From positions 62,575,585 through 62,639,584 of the forward strand of contig NC_060251.1 of NCBI RefSeq assembly GCF_921293095.1: a DNA stretch of 64,000 nucleotides, given 5' to 3'. Made by a program: the position numbers and the translations under genes. The DNA comes from Ischnura elegans. Lineage: Eukaryota; Arthropoda; Insecta; Odonata; Coenagrionidae. The notes under the pieces are model-generated. The model ran no database searches, had not been told where the DNA came from, and was given only the letters and a program-made list of their open reading frames with translations. Numbering within the stretch: position 1 is the stretch's first letter; each line of letters begins with the position of its first letter. Of this stretch, positions 1,741-50,300 are shown one piece after another.

Positions 1741-4513
1741 TATGGATACATCTAAATTATGTTTCTTGCTCAATAGTATTCATTAGCTGACCTCATTATC
1801 TTAAATATGCTGATTCCTCTAATATTAGCTGCTCTGGGAATTAATAAAGAATTTTCTCTTACTTATAAAGGCAGTCAATGGAAAAATTACTAATCTGACT
1901 AAACCTTACTTACGCTCTGTATTTCTAATTTCACTTGATCACACATCATCTTACCATAGCTACTCTAAGTAGCAGCTGTACTAGTTCAAATGCAGAGGCC
2001 CTCAATCTTCCTTGATAAAACGTGATGGCCATGGATGGGGAAAGATGGGGCTTTGGGACGTTAGTAAGCACCAAAATGGAGTGAATCACAACAAATTTAA
2101 TCGAAAAACACAAAACACACACATGTGTGCAAGCTCGCTCATTCACCTAGCAGATTTTCCATGGAGACAGATTTCCGCGTAGGTCTCAAGCACGTACACA
2201 CTGAGGTTGACGAAGTTTACACTTATGCCAGTGACCCTCTCACACAAATAAAATAGGCAAAAGCCAAAAAAATAAAAAAACGCTCGCCCTCCAGTCACGT
2301 TCCTTGCGGATTTGTTTCAAGGAACATATTTTCGCGAGGCAACCACGCACACCAACAAAATCGGTTAAAAAAAATCAAATTAAAAAAATGAAAACGGGAA
2401 AACCCTCACTCACGCTCTCCGCCGATATTCTCTAGGATACAAATTTTCTCGCGGGATTTTTTATTTTTCCATTTATAGTTTTTAATTTCATTGTTTTTTG
2501 CCTTTTTTTTATTTGCGTGAGAGAGTCATTGGCGTAAGCGAAAGCTTCGTTAACCCGAGTGGAAATTCGCTCCTTAGACCAAATCCGCGAAGGGCGAGCC
2601 TGTTTTTTTTTTTTAATTTTGTTTGATTTTCACCCACTTCATTAGTGTGAGTTGGTAAATGCCGTACGCAAAAGCTTCGTAAACCTGAGTTGCTGCGTGC
2701 TTGAGACCTGTGCGGAAATTTGCTCTCTAGGTCAATCTGCTGAGTGAGCTTGCACGTATGAATGTGCTCTTGTGTTTTTAGTTAAACTTTGTTGCATTAT
2801 ACCCCATTGACGTCCTTACTGACTTCCCAACGCCCAATCATAACCTTACTGTCCCTTCGATTGTGCCCCGTATGGCATTGGGAAATTCATTTTCTTTCTA
2901 CTGTTTAACGGGCGTTGACCGTGAATTCATTTTTATGAGAATGGAGGAGGTTAAGTCAGATATCTAGAGAAGAGTATAACGTCATACAATGTAATAACAT
3001 ACCTTCTAAAATCATCACGAAACAGTCACTCCGCTCGATCACTTGTATTTCATATCACTTACGCAAATAAAGTTGGCGGGGGATTAATTGATCCCAAAGG
3101 AATTCGCTTGATGATGGCCAAAGAAACTTTTTTCAATACTGAGGCAAGAGTGCGATTGACTTTTTGTAAAGAAGAGCGAATGACAGTGGTTACAATTCGA
3201 AAACAAATTGACGTATCATTGAGGGAAATATTGCTGAATCAAATTTTAATTTCCTGTCCAGTGGACCGCAGAAGTTAATGCGCATTATCCGACGTTCAAA
3301 CACTCAGAGCTACTGAATTTCCAGGAGGCAAGCCTCCGCCTATCGCATTTTGGTTGATTTTTCAGGAAGCCACGTGCTCTTCGCTCTCATCCCCCAAAAT
3401 ACCTCAGCCTCTCAGTCGCAAAGATATATGAAATGAACTCTATACATATAAAATCGTGGAATAATGCTATATCCATGATTAACACACAAATGGTAATTTC
3501 AATAGCCGCAAAAAAATAAAAACAATAGCCGCAGTCTGGTTGACCGCATGCACTATAATGAGTCATGAATCGCACTCCATTCTGAAAAAATTTCACTTAA
3601 AAGCGCGATTTGCAATTTTTTTACAACATTCTTGATTTTTACGTGTTATTTCATGAGAAAATTGTCTAAACATGATGGAATAACTTCAATTAGCTATGTA
3701 ACACTTAGCGTGACACTTGAAAAAAAGTAAAATACAATTAATACATTTCTTGAAACAACAGCAGTGAGGGAGGAAACCCCAAAGATGGAGTCAGCATTCA
3801 CACCCCCTGAAAGACTTCACTCTTACTTCATTCGGCTGTTTTTGAGGGTAGAAATGCATTGAGGAAGAAGTTCAAGTTTGATGTGGCACGTTAAATTGCA
3901 TACCATACTAATGCATTAAGGAAAAAAATTACTAAAAGAGAGTATCCCACTTTAATTTTGAAACTATTTTAAAGCATCAACTGAGTGTGAACAAAGATAA
4001 ATGCATGAAATTCTACTAAATCATATCTCTAGCATAAAATTTTGAAAGCTCATGCACACATCAGGTATACACATAAGCAGGGACAGTCAGGAGTTATTGG
4101 GGGCCCTCCTTACCAGGGGATTTGGGGATCCACCCCCAGAAAATTTTAGGAAATCGCATGCCCAGAAATATATTTTGACGCTATTCTGGCTCTTAAAAAC
4201 TAGATAAAAGTTAATATAGAATAGCAGCAATTTCATTAGAAAAACTAGGGTGAAAAGTGAGAATTTCATAGGTTATAAAATTTAAAAATTAATTATGGTT
4301 CGATTATCTATTTAGAGCATTTTTCTTCCTTGAAATGCAATGAAATCTAAAAAAAACCTAAAATATCATTTTCAAATAATCCTTTCAAAAAGCATCAGGT
4401 CTTCTTCCTCTATCATCTGACATCTTTATTTTCTTACCTTATCTTTTCACTGAGTATGCTGTAAAGGAAGCAACTAGTACATAGTTTTCTTTTTCGTTTG
4501 CTAACTGCAACAT

Positions 4514-10345: not shown

Positions 10346-13300
10346 CTTCACCAACCACAAAACAGAAACATCACTCAACTTCAACAAATATAATGAAATG
10401 GCTACTTGAAGGCGCTAATCACCAAAATGCTGATGCAGCTATAATACACAACGTTTGTACACAACTATTGCATGCCAATAATTCATAGCATGCACGGATT
10501 TTTGTATCCTACACAACTTATCAACAAGACCAACATTACATAGAATATCAACAATTTCAGTCACATTAACATGATTTTTCACATTCATCCCAAAATGCCC
10601 ACCACAGTTTTAAACACAATTAAGTCTTGTTCTCCCAAAAATTTTATTTCAAAGTTTATCTGCTCTTTAAAGGGAAATTTTATCTGAAAGTAAGGACAAC
10701 ATTCACCTTGAGAAAAAAACAGAGATTGTCAACATGAAGTCACAATGCATATTCAACATTGAAGAAGTGATGTTTCAGCCTTACTCGGCATCCACATTCA
10801 CAATTAGCTAACAAATTCACATTCAGGTTTAAATAAGCATGCACACTGAAAAAGAAAACACATCACTACCATACCTTGTAGTAAAAGATCCCAATCAACA
10901 GATGCTTGAAACACCTCTTGTTGGAGCCAAACTTCGTAGTGCTGCTTGAATTCCTCAGTGAGCTCAACAGGACGACCAAGGACACTTGTGATGCAGTTAT
11001 CAACAGGCTCAAATTCTGGATCCTTTAGAGAAAGTTTAGGGATAAGAGATACTAACCCACTAAGATGTCATTGTTCCAATTGTGAATGATTCATTAAATT
11101 GGCCATATATTTCCACAAACAATATCTGTTACAATTCTTAAAATTATTATCATTATTAGTCAATGAAGAAGAAGAATGATCTCTCCTTCAGAAATACGAA
11201 AGTCTTACAGGGTGGCGAGTGCTTGAAGGTAATCCGAATTATTCCAATTGGTTTTCATTCCAAAATGCTGATTCTGATTGGTTAACAACGAGATTGGAAT
11301 TTGTTGTGTTTGAAAATTTTCACTCTGATGACCACATGAGCCTTCTTTGTGAGTAGGTGGAATGAAAATTTTCAAACACAGGAGATTCTCAACTCATTGC
11401 AAGTGATTGGAATCAAAAGCTTTGAATGATCATTGACTGGAATAATTATTTGTATGACAACAATGATTTGAACATATTGATTTATTATATTACTGGTGAC
11501 TTCAGGCTTTATTTTGTGAAACCTCTCCATATTGGAAATAAAGGAATAAAATTTTGTAAGGTTCACTATTACAGTAATAGTGAACCTTACAAAATTTTAT
11601 TCCTTTATTTCCAATATTGATTTATTCATAAAAGTATACAAAGCAACTGAACATGGAAGAAAATGAAGTACAGAAATGTGGGAAAATATTCCCATTATGA
11701 AATACAACTTAAGTAGCTTTCAAAGCCACAAAACCCTTTGTTATATGTATGAGTTGTGTTAACCAACGACATTAAGATGCATTGCAAGTGCCATTCTTGT
11801 ATCATATCTCGCTCCCAACTCCTTTGATATTGCAGAAGAGAACAAAACGATAATAATATGTAATTTAATATGCCATAAACGATAAAATAACATCACATTA
11901 TTGTGATGAGCCTAATACTAACAAGAACAACTACAACACTCTTCAATTGAATAATAAATATATATTAGTAAACATTAATGGGATAAATATAATGGAGTTG
12001 GTATTGAACATCAATCCATGGAGGCCGAACTTTCACATATAACACCCAAGTGATTTTTTTGGAAAGAAGATGTGTCTTGTGGAAGGAGTTGGGATTTAGA
12101 TGCTGAAAAGAAGGGGTAGGAAGCAGACTACGTATTATCCCTTCCCACATTGTCTACACCCCAACTCTTTTCTTCCCAATTAAAACTCCTGAGTATGAGA
12201 GTTCTATAAATTCAATCTCTTCTACTGCTAATGGGTAGGGACGTACAAAAGTCTCAAATGCAATAGAACGAATTTTAATGCGAATTCTGGGGTTTTCCCG
12301 CAAATATGCAAGTATCGTGATAATCCCGATTTTCTTAATTTTTTCTCCTGACTATGCTTCTCCCACGAAAGTTTTTCCGAGGCTCATGTTAATGCCACAT
12401 TTTTCTGATAAATTGAAGATTTGGATATCTTTCTTAACTGACTTTCAAAACTAAGTGGTAAAATAACACGACTACAGCAAGAAATCACTGCGTGATATTT
12501 TCACCAATGGTATAAAAATTTTACGTGGCTCCAAATTCATTGCTTAAATTATCCCTATTCAATAGCATTACAAAGTCTGGGCAACAGGTGGACCCACTAA
12601 AAGTGTGGCACTCGATCAACATGAATCATTTTGTCATGTACATAACTCCTGTATGAAATATTTTATTTAATATGAAATTAAATGGTCGAGGTTCCACATA
12701 CAAGGGATCGAAGATACACAAAACAAAACGAAGATGATGATAGTTGTATTAAAAGTCTTCTTCTTCTTCCTTCCAGGATTAGGCTACTAAGCCTGTTCCG
12801 GCTCCACATCACCATCTTTTCCTTGGTCTTCCTATACTTCTCTTGCCAAATGGTTGATATTCCATTGCTTGCTTTGGAATTCTTTCATTTGGCATTCGAA
12901 GTAAATGTTCTTTCCATCTATGTTTGTATTCTTTTAATTTGTAAGTGACTGCTTGGACACCCAGTTCATCTCTTATTTGAGTGTTTCTTATTTTATCCAA
13001 TATTGTGCAACCTTTAACTGATCTTAAAAATTTCATTTCAGACGATTCTATCTGCCTTAATTCCTTCTTTTTTGTTACCCAACATTCTGATCCGTAGAGT
13101 ACAGTAGGGACTGCCATCACTTTGTAAAATTTTATTTGTGTTTCTTTTCTTGTTTTGTTCTTTAGAGTTCTTCTGATAGTGCCACATATTCTCTGGAAAG
13201 TGTTCACCTTATTTATAATATCTTTTTCCTCGTCATATGTTATGTCGCATCCTAAGTACTGGAAGTGCGACACTTGCTCCAGGACTTGATCCTCAATAAC

Positions 13301-16300
13301 AATTTTTGTTCTTATCGGGTTGCTTCCTAAAAATGCCATAGTCTTTGTTTTGTTTTTTGAAATTCTCAGGTTGTATAGCTTGCTCAACTCGTGTAGTCTG
13401 TGTACTGCCATCTGGAGTTTGTCCTCTTTATCTTGTATTATAACCTGATCGTCAGCAAACAGCATCGTATTTAAGTATTGAGATGGTCCTATTTCTATGC
13501 CTGGTGATACATTATTCTCTTTCCACATTCTTAGAACGTCATCTATGTATAGATTAAACAAGGTTGGGGATAGGCTGCAACCCTGTCTAACTCCTCGGTT
13601 AATGATAATGTCTTGGGTGATCTGTTTCCCTGTGTCAATTACAATTCTGGTGTCTCTGTATAGACTCTGGGAAGCTTTTATCAGATGTCTAGGAAACCCT
13701 CTTTTCTGCATAACTGACCATAACATTTCTCTATTTACATGATCGAATGCTTTTTCAAAATCTATGAATGCCAGATGCGTTTTCAGATTGAACTCTCTTC
13801 GTTTTTGAATTATTTGTTTTAAAGTAAAAACATCGTCGATGCAAGATCTTCCCTTCCTAAATCCAGCCTGTTCTTCTAATAAAATGGTATCAGAGATAGC
13901 TTGTAGTCTAGTATTTATTATTCTACTGTAAATTTTGTATGCAGTATTTAGTAGGCTTATACCTCTGTAATTCTCTGGATTATTTCTTTTTCCTTTTTTA
14001 AACAATGAAACAACCTTCGCCACATTCCAATCCTTTGGGATTTCAAGCTTTTTCCAACACATGTTGTATAGATGGAGGATTCTTATTTGTAGGGATGTAC
14101 CTCCATATTTTATCAGCTCTGATTCAATTCCATCTATGCCAGCAGCTTTCCTATTTTTTGTCTTATTCAGAGCATACTCTAGTTCTTTCAAGTCAATAGG
14201 GTCTACTCCTATTGTTTCCTCTGGAGTGTTGATCATATCATCTAATGTTGGATCATACCATAATCTCCTATTATTAAAAGTCTTGTCTATTTTTTAAGCG
14301 TCTTGGGGGATGAGGGAGGGGCCCTTCCCTAGATCCGCCTATGAGGCTGATCATTCAGTATTGAATTCCTTTCTACGGGACTTCTCCGGAGAGCTTTTAA
14401 AATTGGGGAGAAATGCATATTCAGTAATGCAGTATTCGATATTCGAATGAGGTATTCGGAAAAAAATTAGGTATTCGTATTCGATATTTGAATTAGAGAA
14501 AAATGCTATTCAACCCATCTCTGAAAATAACCCATGATGATGAAATTCCACGTTGAGAGATTAAAGACAAAAAAAAAATGTTTAGCACAATGCAAAGGGA
14601 TTACACATCCTTATCTTCAAGTTACCTTTGAATCAACATTGTATCTCCTGTTATTGAACCTGTCCACACACGCTCTTAAAGCACATTCTTCTGCTTGAAA
14701 GTCCCACGGGCGTGCATCCAAGTCTGCAGGAGGGAAAACAAATGAGTTAAGCAGCTCGCCAATACTTCTGCAACACACTAAAGGAAGTGAAACAAAAAGA
14801 AACTAACCATTTCCAAATGCCCAATCATCATTCAGTCTGTGGCGTACTTTCTGGTAGATAGCACTCATTGTTTTCATGTTGGATTTCCTCCATTGCCTAC
14901 CCAGATATTTAGTCTGCATTTTAAGCAATTTCAATACGTAAAGCTGCATCATCGCATGCCTCACTTTTAAGGTCCTCTTCAGGATTGGAGCTGACTTGAA
15001 TACAACAAGCATCTGTAAAGGAAATGATTATGGAATAAAATAATTACCAGAGTGAACAGCTATAGCCATGAATGACACCCAGCACAAAGCATTTCAACTA
15101 AAATGTAAATACAATGATTCCAGCACCACTTAAGTACATATACAGATGAGAATGAAATGGCATGCTATGTTTTCAAGTCCATGAAGTCCATCTAGGATGG
15201 AACGTTTTGAGGACCATGGGGCTATTACAATGTTAATATTATTGAGGTTATTATGATAGCATGATTAAGATTTAGGGATGCATGACAAGTAGAGGTTTTA
15301 CTGTATGAATACCTACATACAGTGGAACCTCATTAAAGCGAGTACGGGCTATAGCGACACCCCCGCTATTACGAGAGATAGCCGATGCACCGTCAATTGA
15401 CCCTATAATAAGCGTGTTAAAAAATTCGTTTTTACGAGACCCTTTCGGTGTTGGCTCTCGCCATAGCGAGGGTTTCACCGCCGGAAAAACTTACACCAAG
15501 ACTCCTTAATCTCTGTAATTGCTAGCGATCTGTTAGAAATGAAATTAATGGAGTGCTCAGTCTCAAATTTACGTGGTAAACTGTCGTTCGATAAATATAA
15601 TGATTGACGAAACAATGCTTTGCATGATTTTTATTCATTGCGGCGCTTATAAATTGTTTGGATAGTTAGTCGTTATTTGAGTAAGGAAATTTAGTGATGC
15701 AAAAAAACATCGCCTTTCGTCTGGATTTATGCTTACGTTTATCGGATAGATGTTTATCTGTCGCCCTGTTCCTGTGTATCTGTTCAAAACAGGTGTATAG
15801 GCTGTTATTTGCTCCACCTCCGGTAAAGCGACAATTCGCTATAGCGAGTGTTTATTAGTGCACCGTGGGGTGTCGTTATATCGAGGTTGCACTGTATTTA
15901 ATTTAGCATGAAAAGCTTATTACACAAACAATTGAGTGTAATGAACTCTAACACTACATGAGAGAAGTATATAGTCACGCGCAAGTAACATAATGAGTCC
16001 AACCAATCAAAGCAAAAAAATTCATGCATAATTTCAACTTTGGTTTTCCAGGGAAATTTTATAAAATTTCAAGGTTAATCTACGTGATTACTGCAATGGA
16101 TAAGAATAAAACACCCAAAATTAATTCAATACTTTTAAATAATATTATATTAATGTACCTATTTACAAGGACAAGCAATAGGTTAGTTAACACACATTGC
16201 ATTTTAAATTTTAATTTATTCACTGCAAGCCAAGAAGCTGCTTCAGCCTCGTAAGTTGATATCTCCTGTAATTCGATTCTTCATGTTTTTAAATCTTACA

Positions 16301-29176: not shown

Positions 29177-29453
29177 TCTATAATATATACAACCCGATGT
29201 GTGACAGATAGCTCACTGACTCATTCACGTATACAAATTCCCGACCACTTCCGGACGTGCTGGGAAGACGAAATTTTCACCGTTGGTGGAGAAAAAATAT
29301 TCATCGGCGGGAAAAATCCGAAAACTCGAAAAAGTCGATCGGTTTTCGAGATATATCGATCCGAATTAACATTGGAGCCTTATGGGACTAAAACTTTTTC
29401 CTTTCATCGCCTACTTTTACACGTCACTGGAACGTGAAATTTCGCTGACGGAA

Positions 29454-29820
29454 ACTAGATTTTTTGGCCGATTTTTTGATGTGAAACATTTTGCCATATT
29501 TTGATTAAAAGTATTTTTTATAATTTTTTTAAATTTCCAATGCTTTTCTTATGGGCCTATCTTTGGATTTTTTTAAAACCAATTTATAATCGTTGTAGGA
29601 ATAAGTCCTTAACGTATGAGATACTAGATTTTTTGGTTGATTTTTTTGTGTCGTTTCCTTTGCAATATTTTGATTTAAAGTATTTTTTTTAACTTTTTCA
29701 AATTTTCAATGCTTTTCTTATGGGCCGAATTTCGGAATTTTTTTCACCAATTTGCAATAATCGTAGGACAAATTCACTTAAATGCAAGATACTAGATTTT
29801 TTATTCAATTTTTCGGCTAT
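29454..29820. repeat. Tandem repeat of about 169 bp in the AT-rich arm (copy 1)
   Basis: ACTAGATTTTTTGG begins at 29454 and 29623, and ACTAGATTTTTTATTC at 29791. The following sequence (TTTTGATT..AAAGTATTTTTT, AATGCTTTTCTTATGGGCC) repeats with about 85% similarity by eye. The same array recurs 4,467 bp later at about 33921-34287. Confidence 0.8.
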
Positions 29821-30959
29821 CTTCATGTATCCAAACGACGAAAGAATTTCGAGTTATTAACGATTATGTATTTCCATTGAAATTGCGACTCCTACAACGT
29901 TTGGTAACTTACAACACATCCGCCGTGAAGTTTGCATTCCCTCAACACACGATTTTAAATTTTTCCGAATTTTTTTTTACCACTTCCCGACGTGGTACGG
30001 ACATCAAATTCAGGTGATTGACGTCTTTCTCGTGCCCCTACGCGCCGCTACCAGGAGAACGCAGAATATTTAATTTTAACGGGTGACACCGTCGAAAAAG
30101 CATGCTTACACTACAGCTACAGAGCCGAAATTTTTATCCAAGGTAAACGATGCCGCGTTATACAGAACAAGCACTTTAGGTCCCCCGAAAACCCCCTGTG
30201 ACCCCCCCAAAAAAATAAAAATTACTTAATAAGTCGTATATTTCGTGTACCATTCATCCCAGTTGTATCGTTTTTATGGATTCCGAATGGGAATTTTGTC
30301 GGCTATATTTACGCGTCATGTTCAATAATCCTGCCCCAATTACACACCCGCAATAAAACTTCAAATTTTTAAATGTACATTTCTTAACAAAATAGTAGAG
30401 TAATAAAAGGGGTTCCAGGACATGGACACCTAAAAGCGATTTCTTTAAACCACTTCCACATAAGGTACGGCTACGAAATTCAGATTAGTTATGCCTTATT
30501 ACAGCGCCTATGCACCGCTATGTGGAGAATACAGAATTGGTAATCTAAATGTGAGTAATACGAAAAAATTCATTGTTCCCCTACAGTTAGATCGCTGGAA
30601 TTTTTACTGTAGGTAGACAAAGACGTTTTATGCAAGAAAACCCCTCGATATTTTACGTGGCTTCCAAGAAGACCAGGGAAAAAAGGTTTTTTTCTGTGAA
30701 TAGCATGTTCTTCGGTGTTTTCGCATATTTTAGCAGTAATTCCCTTCTCCTATGACTCATCGCTAAGGAATTTATTTGGATGATTGCGACCGTTGTCAGT
30801 ATATTCATAAAAAAACCCTGGAAACCCCCCGGACCCCCTTCAAAACATCGTCATAAGCTTAAATGCAACAATCACGGCTAGCATGCGTCTACATCCAGCC
30901 ACATTATCCCACGGCAGCCTTTGTAAACGATAGGGGAAAGCTGGTAGTACGCATTGCTC

Positions 30960-32480
30960 TGTGAGGAGTGACAACCCTGGCGGCAAAGCTGACCCCGCCC
31001 CAGGAACGACGGAGACATTCCAAGGAGTCAGATGCGCGGAAAACCTCCGAGAACCCTCGAGCGGCAAATCCGCTCCAACACGTGGAGCAGCCGAATGCGT
31101 GTCTTACGAGGGGGGAGGGCGCTTTGGGCGGCGAAGCCGCACAAAGACAAGGAACGGCGAAGCCGTTCCGAGGAGTCGACGGTTCGGGTGGACACAGTAA
31201 ACCTTGGGCGGCGAAGCCGCCCCATCACGCGGAAGGGCAATGCCGTTCCCAGGATTCGACGCCTCAAGGGGACACGGGTAAACCTTGGGCGGCGAAGGCG
31301 CCCCATCACCAGGAAGGTTTCGAGGGGAGGGCGCCGATAACCCTTGGGCAGCGAAGCCGCCCACAGACGAGGAACGGCGATGCCGTTCCGAGGAGTCGAC
31401 GGCTCGGGGGGACACAGTAAACCTTGGGCGGCGAAGCCGCCCTATCACGTGGAAGGGCGACGCCGTTCCCAGGATTTGACGCCTCGGGGGAACAGGGGTA
31501 AACCCCGGGCGGCGAACCCGCCCCATTACGAGGAAGCTTACGAGGGAGGGCGCCGATAACCCCTGGGCGGCGAAGCCGCCCTCACGCGAGGAACAGCGCA
31601 GCCGTTCCGAGGAGGAGATGGCTCGGGGAAATAGGTAAACCTCGGGAGGCGAAGCCGCCCCACTACGAGGAGATAACCCTTTGGCGGTGAAACCGCCCAC
31701 AGGCGAGGAACGGCGCAGCCGTTCCGAGAAGTCGATGGCGCGGGGGGACCCAGGTAAACCTTGGGCGGCGAAGCCGCCCCATCACGAGGAAGGGCGATGG
31801 CGTTCCCAGGAGCCGACGCCTCGGGGGGACTCGGGTAACACGTGTGCGGCGAAGCCGCCCTCCCACGATGAACGGCGAAGCCGTTCCGAGGAAAAAGCCG
31901 ACCCCCGACGAGGAACGGCGAAGCCGTTCCGAGACGTCGGGGGTGGGACGGCGAAGCCGTCCGGTGGGGGCAGCCGGCGAAGCCGGATGCGGGTCGCCGA
32001 TAACCCTCGGGCGGCCGCCCGCCCAAAGGCGAGGAACGGCGAAGCCGTTCCGAGGAGGCTACGGCTCGGGGGGACACAGGTAAATTTTGGGCGGCGAAGC
32101 CGACCACGGACGAGGATCGGCGAAGCCGTTCCGAGAAGTCGCTGGCTTGGGGGGACCCAGGTAAACCCTGGGCGGCGAAGCCGCCCCACCACGAAGAAGG
32201 GCGATGCCGTTCCCAGGAGTCGACACCTCGGGGGGACTCGGGAAACCCTTGGGCGGCGAAGCCGCCCTTGCACGATGAACGGCGAAGCCGTTCCGAGGAA
32301 CTAGCGGGTCTCCGTCACAGGGCTACCTCGATATCTGGGCGGCGAAGCCGACCCCTGACGAGGAACGGCGAAGCCGTTCCGAGACGCCGCGGGTGGGACG
32401 GCGAAGCCGTCCGGTTGGGGCAGCCGGCGAAGCCGGATGCGGGGGGGTTTTAGGGGGCGTAGCCCCCTAACGACTCATCC
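30960..32480. repeat. GC-rich hairpin array, main block (copy 1)
   Basis: Dozens of short perfect palindromes with a 3-nt loop: GGCGGC-GAA-GCCGCC, GGAACGGC-GAA-GCCGTTCC, GACGGC-GAA-GCCGTC, CCGGC-GAA-GCCGG. They alternate in degenerate units of about 81 bp that also contain TCGGGGGGACAC and GGTAAACC. The repeat is duplicated at 35427-36947. The stem sequence varies, but nearly all loops are GNA closed by C-G. Confidence 0.9.
32448..32475. repeat. Internal terminal-like hairpin (GGGGGC-GTA-GCCCCC)
   Basis: TTTTAGGGGGCGTAGCCCCC followed by TAACGA resembles the unit's own 3' tail near 33598-33622 (TTTTAAGGGGCGGAGCCCCTTAACGAG). The second copy is at 36915-36942. It may mark an older element end buried inside the present unit. 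Confidence 0.6.
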
Positions 32481-33189
32481 CCCCGAAATTTATGTGAATG
32501 GATGGTGATCGCCAGGAGTACACACATTTAAACCCCCGGTATCCCCGTGAAATCCCCCCCAAATGTAAAATGTGTCATTTAGTCTCCTATTTGGGAACTT
32601 CTCGCAAACATTACGCCGCACTACCCGTCCCCTCTGAACTCTAGATCCGGAATATTTGGTGAGGGCGAGCCACCGTAAACCATACGGGAAAAAATACCAG
32701 AACACCCCCGATTACCTCCTGGAACATCGCCGAAAAAAAAATAAAACAAATTTAAACTCGCCTTTCCGAATAGTTTTCGACACAATTTAACCGGTGCCCC
32801 TACCACTTATTAAAACCCCCGATAACCCCGTGAAACCTCCCAAAAAATTTCTAATAAATAGCCTCTCCAGGGAAAAGAATCGTAAGACCACTCTTCCGGT
32901 CCCCTAGGACTTATCGGCACGGAATTTATGAGAACTTTTAGTGACCACTGGTTTAACACAAGTATAAAACCCCCGGTATTCCGTAGGAACCCCCCGAAAA
33001 AAAATGAAAAACTTGCCATTAAGTCTTCTTTTATGGGTACTTGTCGCCACTATTAATCCGCATTGCACTACCTTTTACAATCATCGCTACATGATCACTG
33101 TGGACTTTTGGTGACCGCATGCATAACACATTAAAATCCCCGAATCCCCCTGGGCACCCCTCTCGGTGGGGAAGACCATTTATAAGGAC

Positions 33190-33643
33190 TAGGCGGAGCA
33201 GCCGCGGGGGGGGGCTCCTCAACCCGAAGGCGGCGAAGCCGCCCCACAACGAGGAACTGGCGTAGGCGAGGGGGAGCTTCAGCAACCCCCGGATGGCGTA
33301 GCCGCCCCGATGTTCAAGCGGCGCAACCGCTGTGGACTCCCCCCACCTCTGGGCGGCGAAGCCGCCCATTAAACGAATGACGGTGAAACAGTTCCGAAAT
33401 GCCCTCGCCCTCTGGCACACTAAACCCCCAGGCGGCGAAGCCGCCCTTCAGCGAGGAACGGCGAAGCCGTTCCGGGGAATGAGTGGGGCACCTCCCTACC
33501 CCCTGGCCGGCGAAGCCGGCCCCTAGCCGTGTTGAGATTATTCGAACTTCAAAAGTCTTCGAACGACCACAAATGTAGACGGCGAAGCCGGAACCGGGGT
33601 TTTAAGGGGCGGAGCCCCTTAACGAGCGCGCGGAGCGTGCGAG
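33190..33643. repeat. GC-rich hairpin array, terminal block (copy 1)
   Basis: Second cluster of the same palindromes (GGCGGCGAAGCCGCC, GGCCGGCGAAGCCGGCC, GGAACGGCGAAGCCGTTCC). It ends with AAGGGGC-GGA-GCCCCTT and the terminal GCGCGC-GGA-GCGTGC hairpin. The duplicate is at 37657-38110. Confidence 0.85.
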
Positions 33644-36600
33644 TCTATAATATATACAACCCGATGTGTGACAGATAGCTCACTGACTCATTCACGTATA
33701 CAAATTCCCGACCACTTCCGGACGTGCTGGGAAGACGAAATTTTCACCGTTGGTGGAGAAAAAATATTCATCGGCGGGAAAAATCCGAAAACTCGAAAAA
33801 GTCGATCGGTTTTCGAGATATATCGATCCGAATTAACATTGGAGCCTTATGGGACTAAAACTTTTTCCTTTCATCGCCTACTTTTACACGTCACTGGAAC
33901 GTGAAATTTCGCTGACGGAAACTAGATTTTTTGGCCGATTTTTTGATGTGAAACATTTTGCCATATTTTGATTAAAAGTATTTTTTATAATTTTTTTAAA
34001 TTTCCAATGCTTTTCTTATGGGCCTATCTTTGGATTTTTTTAAAACCAATTTATAATCGTTGTAGGAATAAGTCCTTAACGTATGAGATACTAGATTTTT
34101 TGGTTGATTTTTTTGTGTCGTTTCCTTTGCAATATTTTGATTTAAAGTATTTTTTTTAACTTTTTCAAATTTTCAATGCTTTTCTTATGGGCCGAATTTC
34201 GGAATTTTTTTCACCAATTTGCAATAATCGTAGGACAAATTCACTTAAATGCAAGATACTAGATTTTTTATTCAATTTTTCGGCTATCTTCATGTATCCA
34301 AACGACGAAAGAATTTCGAGTTATTAACGATTATGTATTTCCATTGAAATTGCGACTCCTACAACGTTTGGTAACTTACAACACATCCGCCGTGAAGTTT
34401 GCATTCCCTCAACACACGATTTTAAATTTTTCCGAATTTTTTTTTACCACTTCCCGACGTGGTACGGACATCAAATTCAGGTGATTGACGTCTTTCTCGT
34501 GCCCCTACGCGCCGCTACCAGGAGAACGCAGAATATTTAATTTTAACGGGTGACACCGTCGAAAAAGCATGCTTACACTACAGCTACAGAGCCGAAATTT
34601 TTATCCAAGGTAAACGATGCCGCGTTATACAGAACAAGCACTTTAGGTCCCCCGAAAACCCCCTGTGACCCCCCCAAAAAAATAAAAATTACTTAATAAG
34701 TCGTATATTTCGTGTACCATTCATCCCAGTTGTATCGTTTTTATGGATTCCGAATGGGAATTTTGTCGGCTATATTTACGCGTCATGTTCAATAATCCTG
34801 CCCCAATTACACACCCGCAATAAAACTTCAAATTTTTAAATGTACATTTCTTAACAAAATAGTAGAGTAATAAAAGGGGTTCCAGGACATGGACACCTAA
34901 AAGCGATTTCTTTAAACCACTTCCACATAAGGTACGGCTACGAAATTCAGATTAGTTATGCCTTATTACAGCGCCTATGCACCGCTATGTGGAGAATACA
35001 GAATTGGTAATCTAAATGTGAGTAATACGAAAAAATTCATTGTTCCCCTACAGTTAGATCGCTGGAATTTTTACTGTAGGTAGACAAAGACGTTTTATGC
35101 AAGAAAACCCCTCGATATTTTACGTGGCTTCCAAGAAGACCAGGGAAAAAAGGTTTTTTTCTGTGAATAGCATGTTCTTCGGTGTTTTCGCATATTTTAG
35201 CAGTAATTCCCTTCTCCTATGACTCATCGCTAAGGAATTTATTTGGATGATTGCGACCGTTGTCAGTATATTCATAAAAAAACCCTGGAAACCCCCCGGA
35301 CCCCCTTCAAAACATCGTCATAAGCTTAAATGCAACAATCACGGCTAGCATGCGTCTACATCCAGCCACATTATCCCACGGCAGCCTTTGTAAACGATAG
35401 GGGAAAGCTGGTAGTACGCATTGCTCTGTGAGGAGTGACAACCCTGGCGGCAAAGCTGACCCCGCCCCAGGAACGACGGAGACATTCCAAGGAGTCAGAT
35501 GCGCGGAAAACCTCCGAGAACCCTCGAGCGGCAAATCCGCTCCAACACGTGGAGCAGCCGAATGCGTGTCTTACGAGGGGGGAGGGCGCTTTGGGCGGCG
35601 AAGCCGCACAAAGACAAGGAACGGCGAAGCCGTTCCGAGGAGTCGACGGTTCGGGTGGACACAGTAAACCTTGGGCGGCGAAGCCGCCCCATCACGCGGA
35701 AGGGCAATGCCGTTCCCAGGATTCGACGCCTCAAGGGGACACGGGTAAACCTTGGGCGGCGAAGGCGCCCCATCACCAGGAAGGTTTCGAGGGGAGGGCG
35801 CCGATAACCCTTGGGCAGCGAAGCCGCCCACAGACGAGGAACGGCGATGCCGTTCCGAGGAGTCGACGGCTCGGGGGGACACAGTAAACCTTGGGCGGCG
35901 AAGCCGCCCTATCACGTGGAAGGGCGACGCCGTTCCCAGGATTTGACGCCTCGGGGGAACAGGGGTAAACCCCGGGCGGCGAACCCGCCCCATTACGAGG
36001 AAGCTTACGAGGGAGGGCGCCGATAACCCCTGGGCGGCGAAGCCGCCCTCACGCGAGGAACAGCGCAGCCGTTCCGAGGAGGAGATGGCTCGGGGAAATA
36101 GGTAAACCTCGGGAGGCGAAGCCGCCCCACTACGAGGAGATAACCCTTTGGCGGTGAAACCGCCCACAGGCGAGGAACGGCGCAGCCGTTCCGAGAAGTC
36201 GATGGCGCGGGGGGACCCAGGTAAACCTTGGGCGGCGAAGCCGCCCCATCACGAGGAAGGGCGATGGCGTTCCCAGGAGCCGACGCCTCGGGGGGACTCG
36301 GGTAACACGTGTGCGGCGAAGCCGCCCTCCCACGATGAACGGCGAAGCCGTTCCGAGGAAAAAGCCGACCCCCGACGAGGAACGGCGAAGCCGTTCCGAG
36401 ACGTCGGGGGTGGGACGGCGAAGCCGTCCGGTGGGGGCAGCCGGCGAAGCCGGATGCGGGTCGCCGATAACCCTCGGGCGGCCGCCCGCCCAAAGGCGAG
36501 GAACGGCGAAGCCGTTCCGAGGAGGCTACGGCTCGGGGGGACACAGGTAAATTTTGGGCGGCGAAGCCGACCACGGACGAGGATCGGCGAAGCCGTTCCG

Positions 36601-38110
36601 AGAAGTCGCTGGCTTGGGGGGACCCAGGTAAACCCTGGGCGGCGAAGCCGCCCCACCACGAAGAAGGGCGATGCCGTTCCCAGGAGTCGACACCTCGGGG
36701 GGACTCGGGAAACCCTTGGGCGGCGAAGCCGCCCTTGCACGATGAACGGCGAAGCCGTTCCGAGGAACTAGCGGGTCTCCGTCACAGGGCTACCTCGATA
36801 TCTGGGCGGCGAAGCCGACCCCTGACGAGGAACGGCGAAGCCGTTCCGAGACGCCGCGGGTGGGACGGCGAAGCCGTCCGGTTGGGGCAGCCGGCGAAGC
36901 CGGATGCGGGGGGGTTTTAGGGGGCGTAGCCCCCTAACGACTCATCCCCCCGAAATTTATGTGAATGGATGGTGATCGCCAGGAGTACACACATTTAAAC
37001 CCCCGGTATCCCCGTGAAATCCCCCCCAAATGTAAAATGTGTCATTTAGTCTCCTATTTGGGAACTTCTCGCAAACATTACGCCGCACTACCCGTCCCCT
37101 CTGAACTCTAGATCCGGAATATTTGGTGAGGGCGAGCCACCGTAAACCATACGGGAAAAAATACCAGAACACCCCCGATTACCTCCTGGAACATCGCCGA
37201 AAAAAAAATAAAACAAATTTAAACTCGCCTTTCCGAATAGTTTTCGACACAATTTAACCGGTGCCCCTACCACTTATTAAAACCCCCGATAACCCCGTGA
37301 AACCTCCCAAAAAATTTCTAATAAATAGCCTCTCCAGGGAAAAGAATCGTAAGACCACTCTTCCGGTCCCCTAGGACTTATCGGCACGGAATTTATGAGA
37401 ACTTTTAGTGACCACTGGTTTAACACAAGTATAAAACCCCCGGTATTCCGTAGGAACCCCCCGAAAAAAAATGAAAAACTTGCCATTAAGTCTTCTTTTA
37501 TGGGTACTTGTCGCCACTATTAATCCGCATTGCACTACCTTTTACAATCATCGCTACATGATCACTGTGGACTTTTGGTGACCGCATGCATAACACATTA
37601 AAATCCCCGAATCCCCCTGGGCACCCCTCTCGGTGGGGAAGACCATTTATAAGGACTAGGCGGAGCAGCCGCGGGGGGGGGCTCCTCAACCCGAAGGCGG
37701 CGAAGCCGCCCCACAACGAGGAACTGGCGTAGGCGAGGGGGAGCTTCAGCAACCCCCGGATGGCGTAGCCGCCCCGATGTTCAAGCGGCGCAACCGCTGT
37801 GGACTCCCCCCACCTCTGGGCGGCGAAGCCGCCCATTAAACGAATGACGGTGAAACAGTTCCGAAATGCCCTCGCCCTCTGGCACACTAAACCCCCAGGC
37901 GGCGAAGCCGCCCTTCAGCGAGGAACGGCGAAGCCGTTCCGGGGAATGAGTGGGGCACCTCCCTACCCCCTGGCCGGCGAAGCCGGCCCCTAGCCGTGTT
38001 GAGATTATTCGAACTTCAAAAGTCTTCGAACGACCACAAATGTAGACGGCGAAGCCGGAACCGGGGTTTTAAGGGGCGGAGCCCCTTAACGAGCGCGCGG
38101 AGCGTGCGAG
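33644..38110 (+). mobile_element. Hairpin-dense 4,467-bp unit, copy 2
   Basis: Exact-looking second copy of 29177-33643, offset by 4,467 bp. It is joined directly so that the GCGAG end of copy 1 abuts the TCTATAAT start of copy 2 with no spacer. After the second GCGAG the host sequence resumes with TTTCGTTTTA. This suits rolling-circle read-through or insertion of a circular dimer. A local duplication or an assembly artefact is also possible. Confidence 0.7.
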
Positions 38111-38855
38111 TTTCGTTTTATATAAGCGGATGAACAAATATAAATTGATGGAGTAATAGGTCTATCATAGATCCACAATTCTTAAATCGTCTGAATCGTT
38201 TATCTATTTTAGGCACAAAATCCGTGTAGTTCTCTTTCATGCTCTTAGGCAAATGTTATGTGTTTTCCCTTGCCTTCAACTCCGAGCACGTTTAAGAATA
38301 TCATTGCCCTACCAATGAATTAGAAGAGTTTCAAATAAAATTATAGTATAATAAACCTCAAAATTTAAACATTAATAAGTAGCTTTTGTTGAATTATTTA
38401 AGCATACTTTTCCCATCATTCCAGCAATGAATCTAGCCATGAGGCACAGTGTGTCCCCCTTATCTTATTGTTAGTCATCCACGTAATGCTGAACACAATG
38501 AATATCCCCATCTTCAAAACTTCTGGCTTATCCTACGACACTGTCCTGCCTTTAGAGCATGGAATGAACCCTCAAGACCCTGAAAAAAGTCATAAACCCT
38601 CATAAATTCTGTTTTCGTATTTGAGTGAATGACTCCATAGTGATTTCAGATCTCACCGAATGGCTCTATAACCACTGCCTAAGCAAAGGCCTATGGAACA
38701 GGTTTCTTTCTACATACTACATGTTTCTCAAACTAGTAGTCATGTAGCCAGGGGAGGGGTATTAAGGCTTGAGCCCTCTGCACGCCCCCCAAAATTTCTC
38801 CCTCCATAACCACTGCCTGCAATACATTCCCCTTAAAAGATATCTAGCCTTCTCT

Positions 38856-47300: not shown

Positions 47301-50300
47301 AAATACAAATTCAAGGCGAATGATTTTTTCTCTGTGGATTTTTCGCACAATTGTGCATTGCGGGTGACTCCCGTAAAAAGTTATCACCGCGGCTAGTCCC
47401 GGTATACTTAAATTCGTCAAAGAGAGAACACCTATATGTGTTCAAAGTTAGGACTTTACTCTCCGGCTGTGGCGCCGTGCGCACGATTTGGACTGCTCGT
47501 CGCATAATATGCTCGGCAGTCCATACCACCTTGTCCGGTATAGTCCAGAAATTTCCACAGGGATGAATGACGCCTCGGTAGCTTAACTGGCTAAAGCACT
47601 CGGCCGGAAATCGAGGGATCCGGGTTCGAATCCCGGTCAAGGCGAATGATTTTTTCTCTGGATTTTTCGCACAATGCAAATACTGACTAATGTTGAAATA
47701 ATTAAATTACGTCACCATGAAAGCACTAGATTCAGTGAAGGAATCAGATGGGGACATTCACGAGTTGTGTAAGATAAAAAGGAAAACCACAAATCCACTT
47801 CCATTGCTGGATATGTTAAGAATTAGTGATATCTATTATTTCTACATTCTACAATTCACGAGTTTGATAAAATGTCACTTTATGGGTACTCACGATGGTT
47901 GAAATTTCCCTTCTGGTGCATCATCTCCACAAGTGTTTGCTTGGATCTAGATTCATAGAAGACCTCCTTCACAGTGCGCTCTTCAGAGAACTGGGATGCC
48001 CACAGGCCCTTAAAGTATGCTGCATTTACCTTTTTTTGGATGAGGAGTGAAAAATAAAAGATTATGAGAATCCTGAGTCATTGCAAAATAAAAAATAAAC
48101 TTAACTTGGAATGAGATCTTAGCAGGGGCGGATCCAGGTTTTTTTTCTGGGAGGGGCACAAGCAAGGCCGTATCCAGGATTTTGTTCTGGGTGGGGCACT
48201 AGGATACCTCGTAATACAAAACGAACGCAATGATAATGTATTAAAAATCTTGCATATTTTTGAGGGTCTGGGGGGGGCACGTGCCCCCGTGCCCCCCCCT
48301 GGATCCGCCTATGGATCTTAGAGCATGCAACAAATCCATTCTGAATCAAACGGCCTAAAAATGCTGAATGATAATTTTGATTCACAACATATAGAAAGGC
48401 TGACCATTCCTACATGTGAAATGGTAAGCATAATAGAAATATCAAATTGGTTTTCACACTCTAGAATTTGTGCAGGCAAATTTATAGTGATTGAAAATAT
48501 TTATATTATTTATAAAAGAATATTTTTTCAAATTCATATTATCCTATAAATCCCCCATGATTAATTTTCTTGATTAATGACATGTTTACAATGATCCTTA
48601 ACACTATATATCCATTCTGTGGCAAATTTCACAAGTATTTAACAGAGGAAAATCTTCTCAAAAGTTGGGGGCCATCATATATGACAAAACTGGTCTCATG
48701 GCACTGTTTTTCAAATGTTCCTGCCATCTTCCAAATTCTAAGATAACCACATTTGGTGGGACAAACTCAAGAACCACTGCACCTTTATCTCCCCCGTAGC
48801 TACTGCAGTGCTGTCCAAGTATTAATTATTGAAAAGCAGTATGGGGAGCATTACCTAAAATCTACATTTTAACTGGAAAAATTGGGGATCATCTTATATA
48901 CCCAGTTTTCTCATACTCCAAAATACATGGCATTCATAACCAAAATTCCCAAGTTTGAGGACTTACCACGACAAGGTTGGTGTTGTGGGTGATTCCACCC
49001 TGAGGAATGAGATCCTTGATGTGGCCTTTGGTTTCCATCTCTACCCAAGAGTTGATTTCATTCCTGGCCGGTTCAGGTGCATTTTCAAAGTCCAGCTTCT
49101 TTATCTCTGCTTCCAAAAGTTTCTGCAGGCATGGACGGACCTCTTCTTTGTTGTCAAAATACAAGCGGTTGGAGACTGAGAGCTCGTATCCAAGCCCTTG
49201 GCTCTTTTTCTGTTCATCTGTAGCATTTTCTGTTGAGGAAACAGGTGGAAAACAAGGTGTAATGAATGTTTAGCTATCCCAATATCAGCAGCATTCCAGA
49301 GTGCACTTGGGTCAGGGTCTGAAAAATGCTGGAAAACCTGAAAAAAAAAATTATCCCGGACAAAAATACATTTAAGTACAAAGAATTCTTGAGTAGGACT
49401 TGTACTTAAAATCAGGAAATAAGCAGGTGAATCTGGTAATAAAAATAGCATATCATTTTCACACACAGCTATTATTTTATACACATCCTAATCAAGTACA
49501 TACGCAAAAAAATTTTAGGGGAAAATGGGCTGGTAAAGTCGCTAACATTCGTTTTGCTTTGTTTATGGTCAATACTGAAAATGTTAAGAACACAGTGAGA
49601 TTCAATGATACTGATAAGAAATCACTGCAGATTGAAATGAAAATAACCATTCCCTCAAATTGTTGCAGGTATTTACAGCTTTATTTCTTCTGCACAAAAA
49701 TGCAATGTAACTGAGATATACGCAATACCTTTAGAAAATCAGGTCGCAATTTCTACATTTAAATGGTTCGATTTAGAAAAAATGTCTTTTATAAGGCAAT
49801 GAAAGGAGAAACAAATCCATGAAACATAATTTTAATTACATGAATGGATGAATATATTCTTTGTTCAGTGCTGGATAGTGAAAATTCTGGTATGTGTGCA
49901 AAGAGGAAGCATACTTGTGTTATTTTCGATGGAGGATTAGGTGATAGAATGCACCAATTTCTTCATTTCCCCTGGCAGTTTGCCCATTTCAGGAAATAAT
50001 TGAGTCTCTTAACGAATTGAATGCACAATGACCATTTTTATGGCCTCATAAAAATGACAGAAATTTCTATGATTCACAATCAATGTACATAATGTACATA
50101 CTGAATTTCCAATGGTGTTTACCATCAAGAATTCTGTTGAAGTTACACTTCCTTGAGTACCAGGAACTTATATTCTTGCTTTCACAATTTTTATAATTAC
50201 TTGAAATCCTTTAAAAATCATTCCAATACACAACCTATCTATACTAATACACATTTTTTAAGCTCTTTATGTAAACCATGTTCTTTATAGTTACTGGGAT

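What the first reader, a model, noticed from the sequence alone, without database searches (positions are those of the whole stretch)
29177..38110. Head-to-tail pair of 4,467-bp hairpin-rich units: candidate unusual Helitron-like element
The two units look identical and abut with no spacer. The host sequence ends in A on the left and resumes with T on the right. The unit starts with TC and ends just after a GC hairpin. No terminal inverted repeats and no target duplication are visible. These are rolling-circle (Helitron) traits, but the 3' end reads CGAG rather than CTRR and no Rep/helicase is encoded. It could be a new non-autonomous family or an integrated circular dimer.
Basis: partly seen in the sequence, partly recalled or inferred. 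Interest (0 to 1): 0.88.

Follow-up and report, generated by a model that had tools for sequence, protein, structure and literature searches.

The report
Tandem jumping genes with unusual ends
Two identical 4,467-base copies of a protein-less Helitron-type jumping element sit head to tail in a eukaryotic chromosome; hundreds of relatives and a likely enzyme-encoding parent share the genome, and they tend to insert at sites that look like their own left end.

Summary
In detail: window 29177-33643 and 33644-38110 are identical (0 of 4,467 differences). The unit is a non-autonomous member of a large Helitron-type family in a 1.72-Gb genome, probably of an invertebrate. Ends are A|TCTATAWTATATACAAC on the left and two GC hairpins plus CGAG|T on the right. 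Host 5' flanks end in A in 25 of 26; 3' flanks begin with T in 24 of 24 not selected for T. One insertion has 21 paralogous empty sites; two, read base by base, show no duplication. A likely autonomous partner with similar ends lies inside the same arrays: 24,750 bp, Helraiser-like RepHel (E 4e-163 to 7LCC), weak herpesvirus-tegument-DUB-like N-terminus. Differences from canonical Helitrons: CGAG instead of CTRR, hairpin spacing, GC-hairpin body. Of 481 exact 5' ends, 287 follow GCGAG, another unit's 3' end. Host 3' flanks carry a positioned TATA mimicking the element's 5' end (35 of 62; shuffles mean 5.2, maximum 13). I infer that target recognition reuses 5'-end recognition, so resident 5' ends would attract new copies. 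The window unit is a composite, unique among hits scored, joined at microhomology with loss of an internal terminator.

The parts
29177..33643 (+). Unit 1: non-autonomous Helitron-type element, 4,467 bp
33644..38110 (+). Unit 2: identical copy, head to tail
   Evidence: 0 of 4,467 mismatches
29177..29206 (+). 5' end (LTS) TCTATAATATATACAACCCGATGTGTGACA; 481 exact copies in the genome (W at position 7), 287 of them preceded by GCGAG
29292..29879 (+). 5' region similar to the likely autonomous partner (77-78% identity, partner positions 110-533)
31105..32400 (+). Array of GC hairpins of the GGCGAAGCC type, sub-repeats mostly about 80 bp
32453..32473 (+). Remnant internal 3' terminator (GGGGGCGTAGCCCCC hairpin + TAACGA) that lacks the last 19 nt seen at the 3' end of the L012 unit
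32464..33643 (+). 3' module (unit 3288-4467) shared with second units in L023 and L017 (97.7 and 99.2% identical); fusion inside a short microhomology ending AACGA
33602..33622 (+). Subterminal hairpin TTAAGGGGC/GCCCCTTAA, 9-bp stem as folded (RNA energies)
33626..33640 (+). Terminal hairpin GCGCGC-GGA-GCGTGC, 3 nt from the end (RNA energies)
33640..33643 (+). 3' terminus CGAG (not CTRR)
38069..38110 (+). The same two terminal hairpins and CGAG end in unit 2, followed by host T
38111..38126 (+). Host 3' flank TTTCGTTTTATATAAG: TATA at positions 9-12, the motif found in most host 3' flanks sampled

Best explanation
The feature is a recent tandem dimer of a composite non-autonomous Helitron-type (HUH-RepHel rolling-circle) element. 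Proposed mechanism: the RepHel of the 24.75-kb partner nicks the plus strand at A|TC, unwinds to the 3' hairpins, cuts after CGAG, and inserts the circularised or multimeric product between A and T. Missed termination (hairpin bypass with a microhomology switch) made the composite. Copying past the CGAG|TC junction, or insertion of a second copy at the first copy's A|TC end, made the identical dimer. Shown here: exact ends, target dinucleotide, empty site of one copy, a likely partner with similar ends, arrays, composite junction. Inferred: the enzymology, that this partner mobilises the unit, and which of the two routes made this dimer.
For: Ends: 25 of 26 host 5' flanks end in A (11 of 11 after leaving out one array junction; 14 of 15, places picked because GCGAG does not precede them). 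24 of 24 distinct host 3' flanks not selected for T begin with T (the other 38 of 62 were picked by a pattern that requires T). In 30 of 30 slices placed by BLAST hits the 3' end is CGAG followed by T. Empty site: 21 of 31 hits to the joined L023 flanks run across the junction in one piece; the two that were fetched match 117 of 120 bases with no indel. Partner: TCCCGTCTATATACAGC... to ...CTAGCGAGCTACAGCGAG|T, 24,750 bp on C11, head to tail between units of this family. An uninterrupted 1,816-aa frame from its C4 relative matches Helraiser 7LCC at E 4e-163, with PF14214 and PF05970 and the PHAH, YLFKY and GPGGYGKT motifs. A second RepHel lineage on C13 has a 3' end nearly identical to some units'. 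Arrays: 18 of 21 loci carry a head-to-tail junction (the only one in L027 has one extra T), and 287 of 481 5' ends are preceded by GCGAG. The composite junction is matched in full only by the two window units; the other 38 of 40 scored hits match only bases 91-200 (2,634 first-look candidates).
Against: The 3' terminus is CGAG, not CTRR. The last hairpin of the unit is 3 nt from the end, while the partner's clear GC hairpin stands about 17 nt from its end (sequence), so the two 3' ends are not the same in this respect. The partner's similarity to the window unit is limited to the 5' region (77-78%) and the 3' hairpin region (83% over 65 bp). Mobilisation in trans is not demonstrated. The dimer was not checked with reads. 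One of 26 5' flanks ends in T. The window's own flanks are single-copy, so its own empty site could not be shown.
Confidence: 0.92

Rival explanations
1. Identical dimer = single insertion of a rolling-circle multimer (copying past the 3' terminator of a circle), rather than two successive insertions.
For: The composite is found only at this locus among the 40 hits scored, and both units carry the same fusion with 0 differences. Runs of equal start-to-start spacing exist (three spacings of 3,030 bp on C2, two of 3,018 bp on C5). Head-to-tail circles are experimental intermediates of Helraiser (passages of PMC5876387 and PMC4778049).
Against: Heteromeric arrays are common in the fetched loci and need insertion at an exact resident boundary or remobilisation of older arrays.
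Confidence: 0.5
2. Arrays, including this dimer, grow by insertion of a copy at the A|TC 5' end of a resident copy, because the target signal equals the 5'-end signal.
For: Host 3' flanks mimic the LTS: TATA starting at position 8-10 in 35 of 62 (dinucleotide shuffles mean 5.2, maximum 13 of 1,000; equal-width controls at 20-22 and 30-32 give 1 and 2) and at 7-12 in 47 of 62 (shuffles mean 9.6, maximum 18). In the second sample, taken after the idea was formed, the count was 21 of 39 distinct flanks, or 20 of 38 without an array junction (shuffles on the 39: mean 3.5, maximum 11 of 2,000). Mixed head-to-tail arrays exist.
Against: The mimic is partial (16 of 62 match TATATACARC at 8 or more of 10; shuffles mean 1.9, maximum 7). 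A+T-rich 3' flanks are known for other Helitrons. Other junction orientations were not searched for. One identical dimer does not need this route.
Confidence: 0.4
3. Assembly artefact or ordinary segmental tandem duplication.
For: The two copies are perfectly identical and no reads are available.
Against: The junction is exactly 3' end | 5' end, as in 286 other places. Heteromeric arrays with non-identical units are not expected from collapse or expansion errors. Unequal exchange would not create the first junction at exact element ends.
Confidence: 0.06
4. A non-Helitron element (TIR transposon, or other HUH element) or a Helentron/Helitron2.
For: CGAG is not CTRR; the GC-rich hairpins are unusual.
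Against: A|T insertion without duplication, 5' TC, no TIRs found, and a Helraiser-like RepHel with similar ends in the same arrays; no endonuclease domain matched in the 1,816-aa protein.
Confidence: 0.02

Closest known systems
Helraiser / Helibat1 (bat Helitron)
   Same: RepHel homologous over 453-1814 (7LCC, E 4e-163); TC start; A|T target without duplication; 3' hairpin; A+T preference strongest on the 3'-flank side reported for Helraiser (passages of PMC4778049)
   Different: CGAG instead of CTAG; hairpin spacing; 24.75-kb partner against a 5,296-bp element; tegument-like N-terminal domain; positioned TATA in the target (the Helraiser target logo is a figure and was not seen); GC-hairpin array body
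Helitrons and Helentrons with VTD (tegument-like DUB) domains (PMC9741609, passages)
   Same: Weak match of the N-terminal domain to PF04843 Herpes_teg_N (24.5 and 22.6 bits, just under the 25.0 cut-off)
   Different: That paper assigns its VTD Helitrons to Helentrons with a C-terminal endonuclease; none matched in this protein
Tandem Helitron arrays in plants, bats and others (cited in passages of PMC5876387 and PMC5148889)
   Same: Head-to-tail junctions and multimers
   Different: Here mixed arrays contain the likely autonomous partner, 287 of 481 exact 5' ends are internal to arrays, and ends and target share a motif; those array papers themselves were not read
Composite FoHelis of Fusarium (PMC5148889, section 16 and passages)
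   Same: Composite elements with lost or duplicated internal termini, proposed to come from self-insertion
   Different: FoHelis have asymmetric inverted repeats and different ends; here a 3' terminator was lost at a microhomology

Membership tests
Helitron superfamily (RepHel rolling-circle elements) | Autonomous partner encodes HUH-Y2 Rep plus PIF1-like helicase | tested here: met
   PF14214 110.7 bits, PF05970 173.1 bits; 7LCC E 4e-163; PHAH 896, YLFKY 1038, GPGGYGKT 1382. The window unit itself encodes none, and that this partner serves it is inferred.
Helitron superfamily (RepHel rolling-circle elements) | Insertion between A and T, no target-site duplication | tested here: met
   A in 25 of 26, T in 24 of 24 not selected for T; two empty sites read for one insertion
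Canonical Helitron (Helitron1) ends | 5' TC | tested here: met
   Host-flanked 5' ends; the position of the end was fixed by BLAST
Canonical Helitron (Helitron1) ends | 3' CTRR | tested here: not met
   CGAG in the window and in 30 of 30 slices placed by BLAST hits
Canonical Helitron (Helitron1) ends | Hairpin about 10-12 nt from the 3' end | tested here: not met
   Window unit: last hairpin 3 nt from the terminus; partner: clear GC hairpin about 17 nt from the terminus (RNA energies)
Canonical Helitron (Helitron1) ends | No terminal inverted repeats | tested here: met
   None of the 23 inverted pairs of 12 nt or more listed for the unit joins the two ends
Helentron / Helitron2 | C-terminal AP endonuclease (Helentron) | tested here: not met
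   No such domain matched in the 1,816-aa protein at E up to 0.1
Helentron / Helitron2 | T-rich / TT target, asymmetric terminal inverted repeats | tested here: not met
   A|T target; no such repeats of 12 nt or more. The partner's 5' end TCCCG...CGGGA can form a 5-bp stem (sequence).
VTD deubiquitinase | Tegument-like DUB fold with catalytic residues | tested here: inconclusive
   Pfam score just below cut-off; no meaningful PDB sequence match. A QCVVNS Cys and an FDSH motif are present in the sequence; calling them catalytic is recalled.
Active element | Current transposition | not testable with these tools
   Identical units and an uninterrupted RepHel frame suggest recency only

The most novel reading that the evidence does not exclude
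A Helitron lineage in which target choice and 5'-end recognition are one signal (A|T, then TATA(TACARC) about 7-9 bases on). Every resident 5' end is then a preferred landing site, so elements, including their autonomous partner, build self-extending mixed head-to-tail arrays.
Probability: 0.45. Interest if true: 0.72.

Novelty: new variant of a known kind. Interest (0 to 1): 0.57.

Why it matters
How Helitrons choose A|T targets and why they form tandem arrays are open mechanistic questions. Here hundreds of copies with exact ends, a full-length RepHel partner candidate and a positioned target motif that copies the 5' end make both directly testable. Annotation tools that require CTRR would be expected to miss this family (inference, not tested).

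Tried and rejected
Rejected: repeated insertion of this family at one retrotransposon site. In one search two partial hit pairs looked like further insertions at the L023 site, but the fetched sequences (L118, L119) hold inserts that do not match the unit and have their own inverted ends, and L120 is unresolved, so they are not evidence for target specificity of this family.

No support found: host gene cargo in the 24.75-kb partner. Of the 26 ORFs of at least 70 aa listed for the stretch before the RepHel frame, ten were scanned with Pfam and gave two sub-threshold matches only; the other 16 were not scanned. The interior holds many diverged direct repeats.

Led nowhere: a viral-contig scan with RepHel found nothing. 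A PDB sequence search with the N-terminal domain found nothing meaningful. The window's own joined flanks match only themselves. Organism: not identified; a nuclear COX1 fragment reads with the invertebrate mitochondrial code, and calling it invertebrate or arthropod-like is recall and inference.

Corrected on the way: the junction script under-filtered array junctions; one search corrected this but still kept one (L013), removed. The first count of distinct flanks holds mis-parses (L009, L057). A draft of this report gave T at 62 of 62 3' flanks; 38 of these were chosen by a pattern that requires T, so only 24 of 24 are a test.
Full report
Observation. The window is C6:62575585-62639584 of a 1.72-Gb, 110-contig genome. 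The two units at 29177-33643 and 33644-38110 are identical and abut exactly. The unit has a 5' A+T-rich region, a GC-rich array of GCGAAGC mini-hairpins (29 occurrences of the 7-mer against 0.35 expected), and a 3' end with two hairpins followed by GAG. Five of its seven ORFs of 100 aa or more gave no Pfam match.

Family and ends. A search with the first kilobase scored 40 copies at 95-100% identity out of 2,298 first-look candidates. Twenty loci were fetched. Their junctions put the ends at TC... and ...CGAG. In one search the ends were found by pattern, 30 of 30 slices placed by BLAST hits to the 3' 500 bp (30 of the 40 hits) end in CGAG followed by T. Host 5' flanks end in A in 11 of 11 (after leaving out an L027 array junction) and in 14 of 15 further places picked because GCGAG does not precede them; the exception ends in T. 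Host 3' flanks: 24 of 24 not selected for T begin with T; the other 38 were picked by a pattern that requires T. Exact-pattern counts are 481 for the 5' 30-mer and 346 for the 3'-end pattern followed by T and a non-C base, with zero control matches.

Empty site. The heterodimer in L023 sits inside a repeat whose flank looks reverse-transcriptase-like (read by eye). Its joined flanks have 31 hits: 21 run across the junction in one piece, most at the same length as the query stretch and two one base longer; one more spans it at 70% identity; the other nine are partial. Two of the continuous copies were fetched and match 117 of 120 bases with no indel. The window's own flanks are single-copy.

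Arrays. In 18 of 21 loci at least one 3' end is followed directly by a 5' end (L022, L024 and L028 show none by this pattern, and the one in L027 has an extra T). Genome-wide 287 of 481 5' ends are preceded by GCGAG. Arrays mix families: TCTATA... units followed by TCCTATC... units, among others. Only head-to-tail junctions were looked for. Regular spacing also occurs, for example the same fragment at C6:61949092, 61951336, 61953579 and 61955822, 2,243-2,244 bp apart, and four array-internal 5' ends 3,030 bp apart on C2.

Likely autonomous partner. PF14214 matches 119 places in the genome, some of them next to these arrays. On C11 one element, read in full, runs from 26193947 to 26218696: 24,750 bp, starting TCCCGTCTATATACAGCGGGATGTG and ending CCCCCTAGCGAGCTACAGCGAG|T, with units of this family directly upstream and downstream. 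On C4 a relative is 99.3% identical over 10.8 kb and has the same 3' end before a TCCTATC unit; the same 5' end stands behind another unit's 3' end upstream, but about 11.3 kb between was not fetched. The C4 copy has an uninterrupted 1,816-aa frame; the C11 copy has one in-frame stop. The C4 protein matches Helraiser (7LCC) at E 4e-163 over 453-1814. The N-terminal domain resembles the herpesvirus tegument DUB family just below the Pfam cut-off. Such VTD domains are known in Helitrons that the authors assign to Helentrons (passages of PMC9741609), but no endonuclease domain matched here. A related lineage on C13 has the 3' end GGGGGCGTAGCCCCCTAGCGAGCGCGCGCAGCGCGGCGAG|T, nearly identical to that of some non-autonomous units. 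The C11 partner's 5' region is 77-78% identical to the unit's over partner positions 110-533, and the 3' hairpin region 83% over 65 bp; its clear GC hairpin is about 17 nt from the end, not 3. That this partner mobilises the unit is inferred.

Composite origin of the unit. At 32453-32473 the unit carries a hairpin terminator that lacks the last 19 nt of the L012 unit's end. From 32464 on it matches the 3' part of second units in L023 and L017 (97.7 and 99.2%). The two parents share a short microhomology ending in AACGA at the join. A 200-bp query across the join matches fully only the two window units; the other 38 of 40 scored hits start at base 91 (2,634 first-look candidates). So the composite appears unique and was doubled here. 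Bypass of the 3' hairpin is given as the prevailing explanation for capture by Helitrons (passages of PMC6431247).

Target motif. The first 25 host flanks suggested a TATA near position 9: 15 of 25 start at 8-10 (shuffles mean 1.8, maximum 7 of 2,000). A second sample of 40 places, chosen by 3' end followed by T and a non-C base, gave 21 of 39 distinct flanks (shuffle mean 3.5, maximum 11 of 2,000; six equal-width control windows 0-1), or 20 of 38 after removing one array junction. Over all 62 host flanks the count is 35 (shuffle mean 5.2, maximum 13 of 1,000; control windows 1 and 2), and 47 of 62 for starts at 7-12 (shuffle mean 9.6, maximum 18). The element's own 5' end has TATATA at positions 8-13. 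The match to TATATACARC is 7 or more of 10 in 40 of 62 and 8 or more in 16 of 62 (shuffles for 8 or more: mean 1.9, maximum 7). Thus the target looks like the element's own 5' end, beyond A+T content. Earlier work reports A+T-rich 3' flanks for Helraiser (passages of PMC4778049) and for rice Helitrons (passages of PMC2575219). I found no report of a positioned mimic of the 5' end in the listings of searches or in passages of PMC5148889, PMC5876387, PMC4778049, PMC6544945, PMC13286980 and PMC2575219; figures (such as target logos) are not held, and subscription papers are mostly missing.

Mechanism. RepHel elements of this type form head-to-tail circles that can reintegrate (passages of PMC5876387 and PMC4778049). 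Two routes to the dimer fit: a multimer made by copying past the CGAG|TC junction, or insertion at a resident A|TC end. The data do not separate them for this dimer. Mixed arrays favour the second route as at least one contributor (inference).

Novelty. It works like, and by its likely partner belongs to, the RepHel Helitrons, but it fails the canonical CTRR test and the hairpin-spacing test. I file it as a new variant.

Noticed in passing
C11:26193947-26218696 (L015, L035, L032, L029): Giant likely autonomous Helitron: about 16.5 kb between the 5' end and the RepHel frame has no ORF of 200 aa or more and many diverged direct repeats; a tandem repeat of about 277 bp follows the frame.
   Followed up: partly
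C11 partner positions 1-21; L101: The partner's 5' end TCCCG...CGGGA can form a 5-bp stem around the TATATA block; a variant 5' end at L101/L102 keeps the same stem.
   Followed up: no
C4:98347876-98455428: About 107-kb region with many family 3' modules (one of those listed in opposite orientation) and two RepHel matches with 1,816-aa frames 44,292 bp apart.
   Followed up: partly
C13:4879689-5119126: Dense cluster of family members and four RepHel matches on a 21-Mb contig.
   Followed up: partly
window 12809-14236 (-): 475-aa frame with a reverse-transcriptase domain (PF00078, E 8e-41).
   Followed up: no
window 47572-47644 (+): tRNA gene by Rfam (55 bits).
   Followed up: no
L118 and L119: Two other inserts of about 1.08 and 1.73 kb with their own inverted ends lie at the same TA-rich position of the repeat hit by L023.
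   Followed up: partly
C3:1252005-1252781 (L117): Nuclear copy of a mitochondrial COX1 fragment, readable with the invertebrate mitochondrial code.
   Followed up: partly
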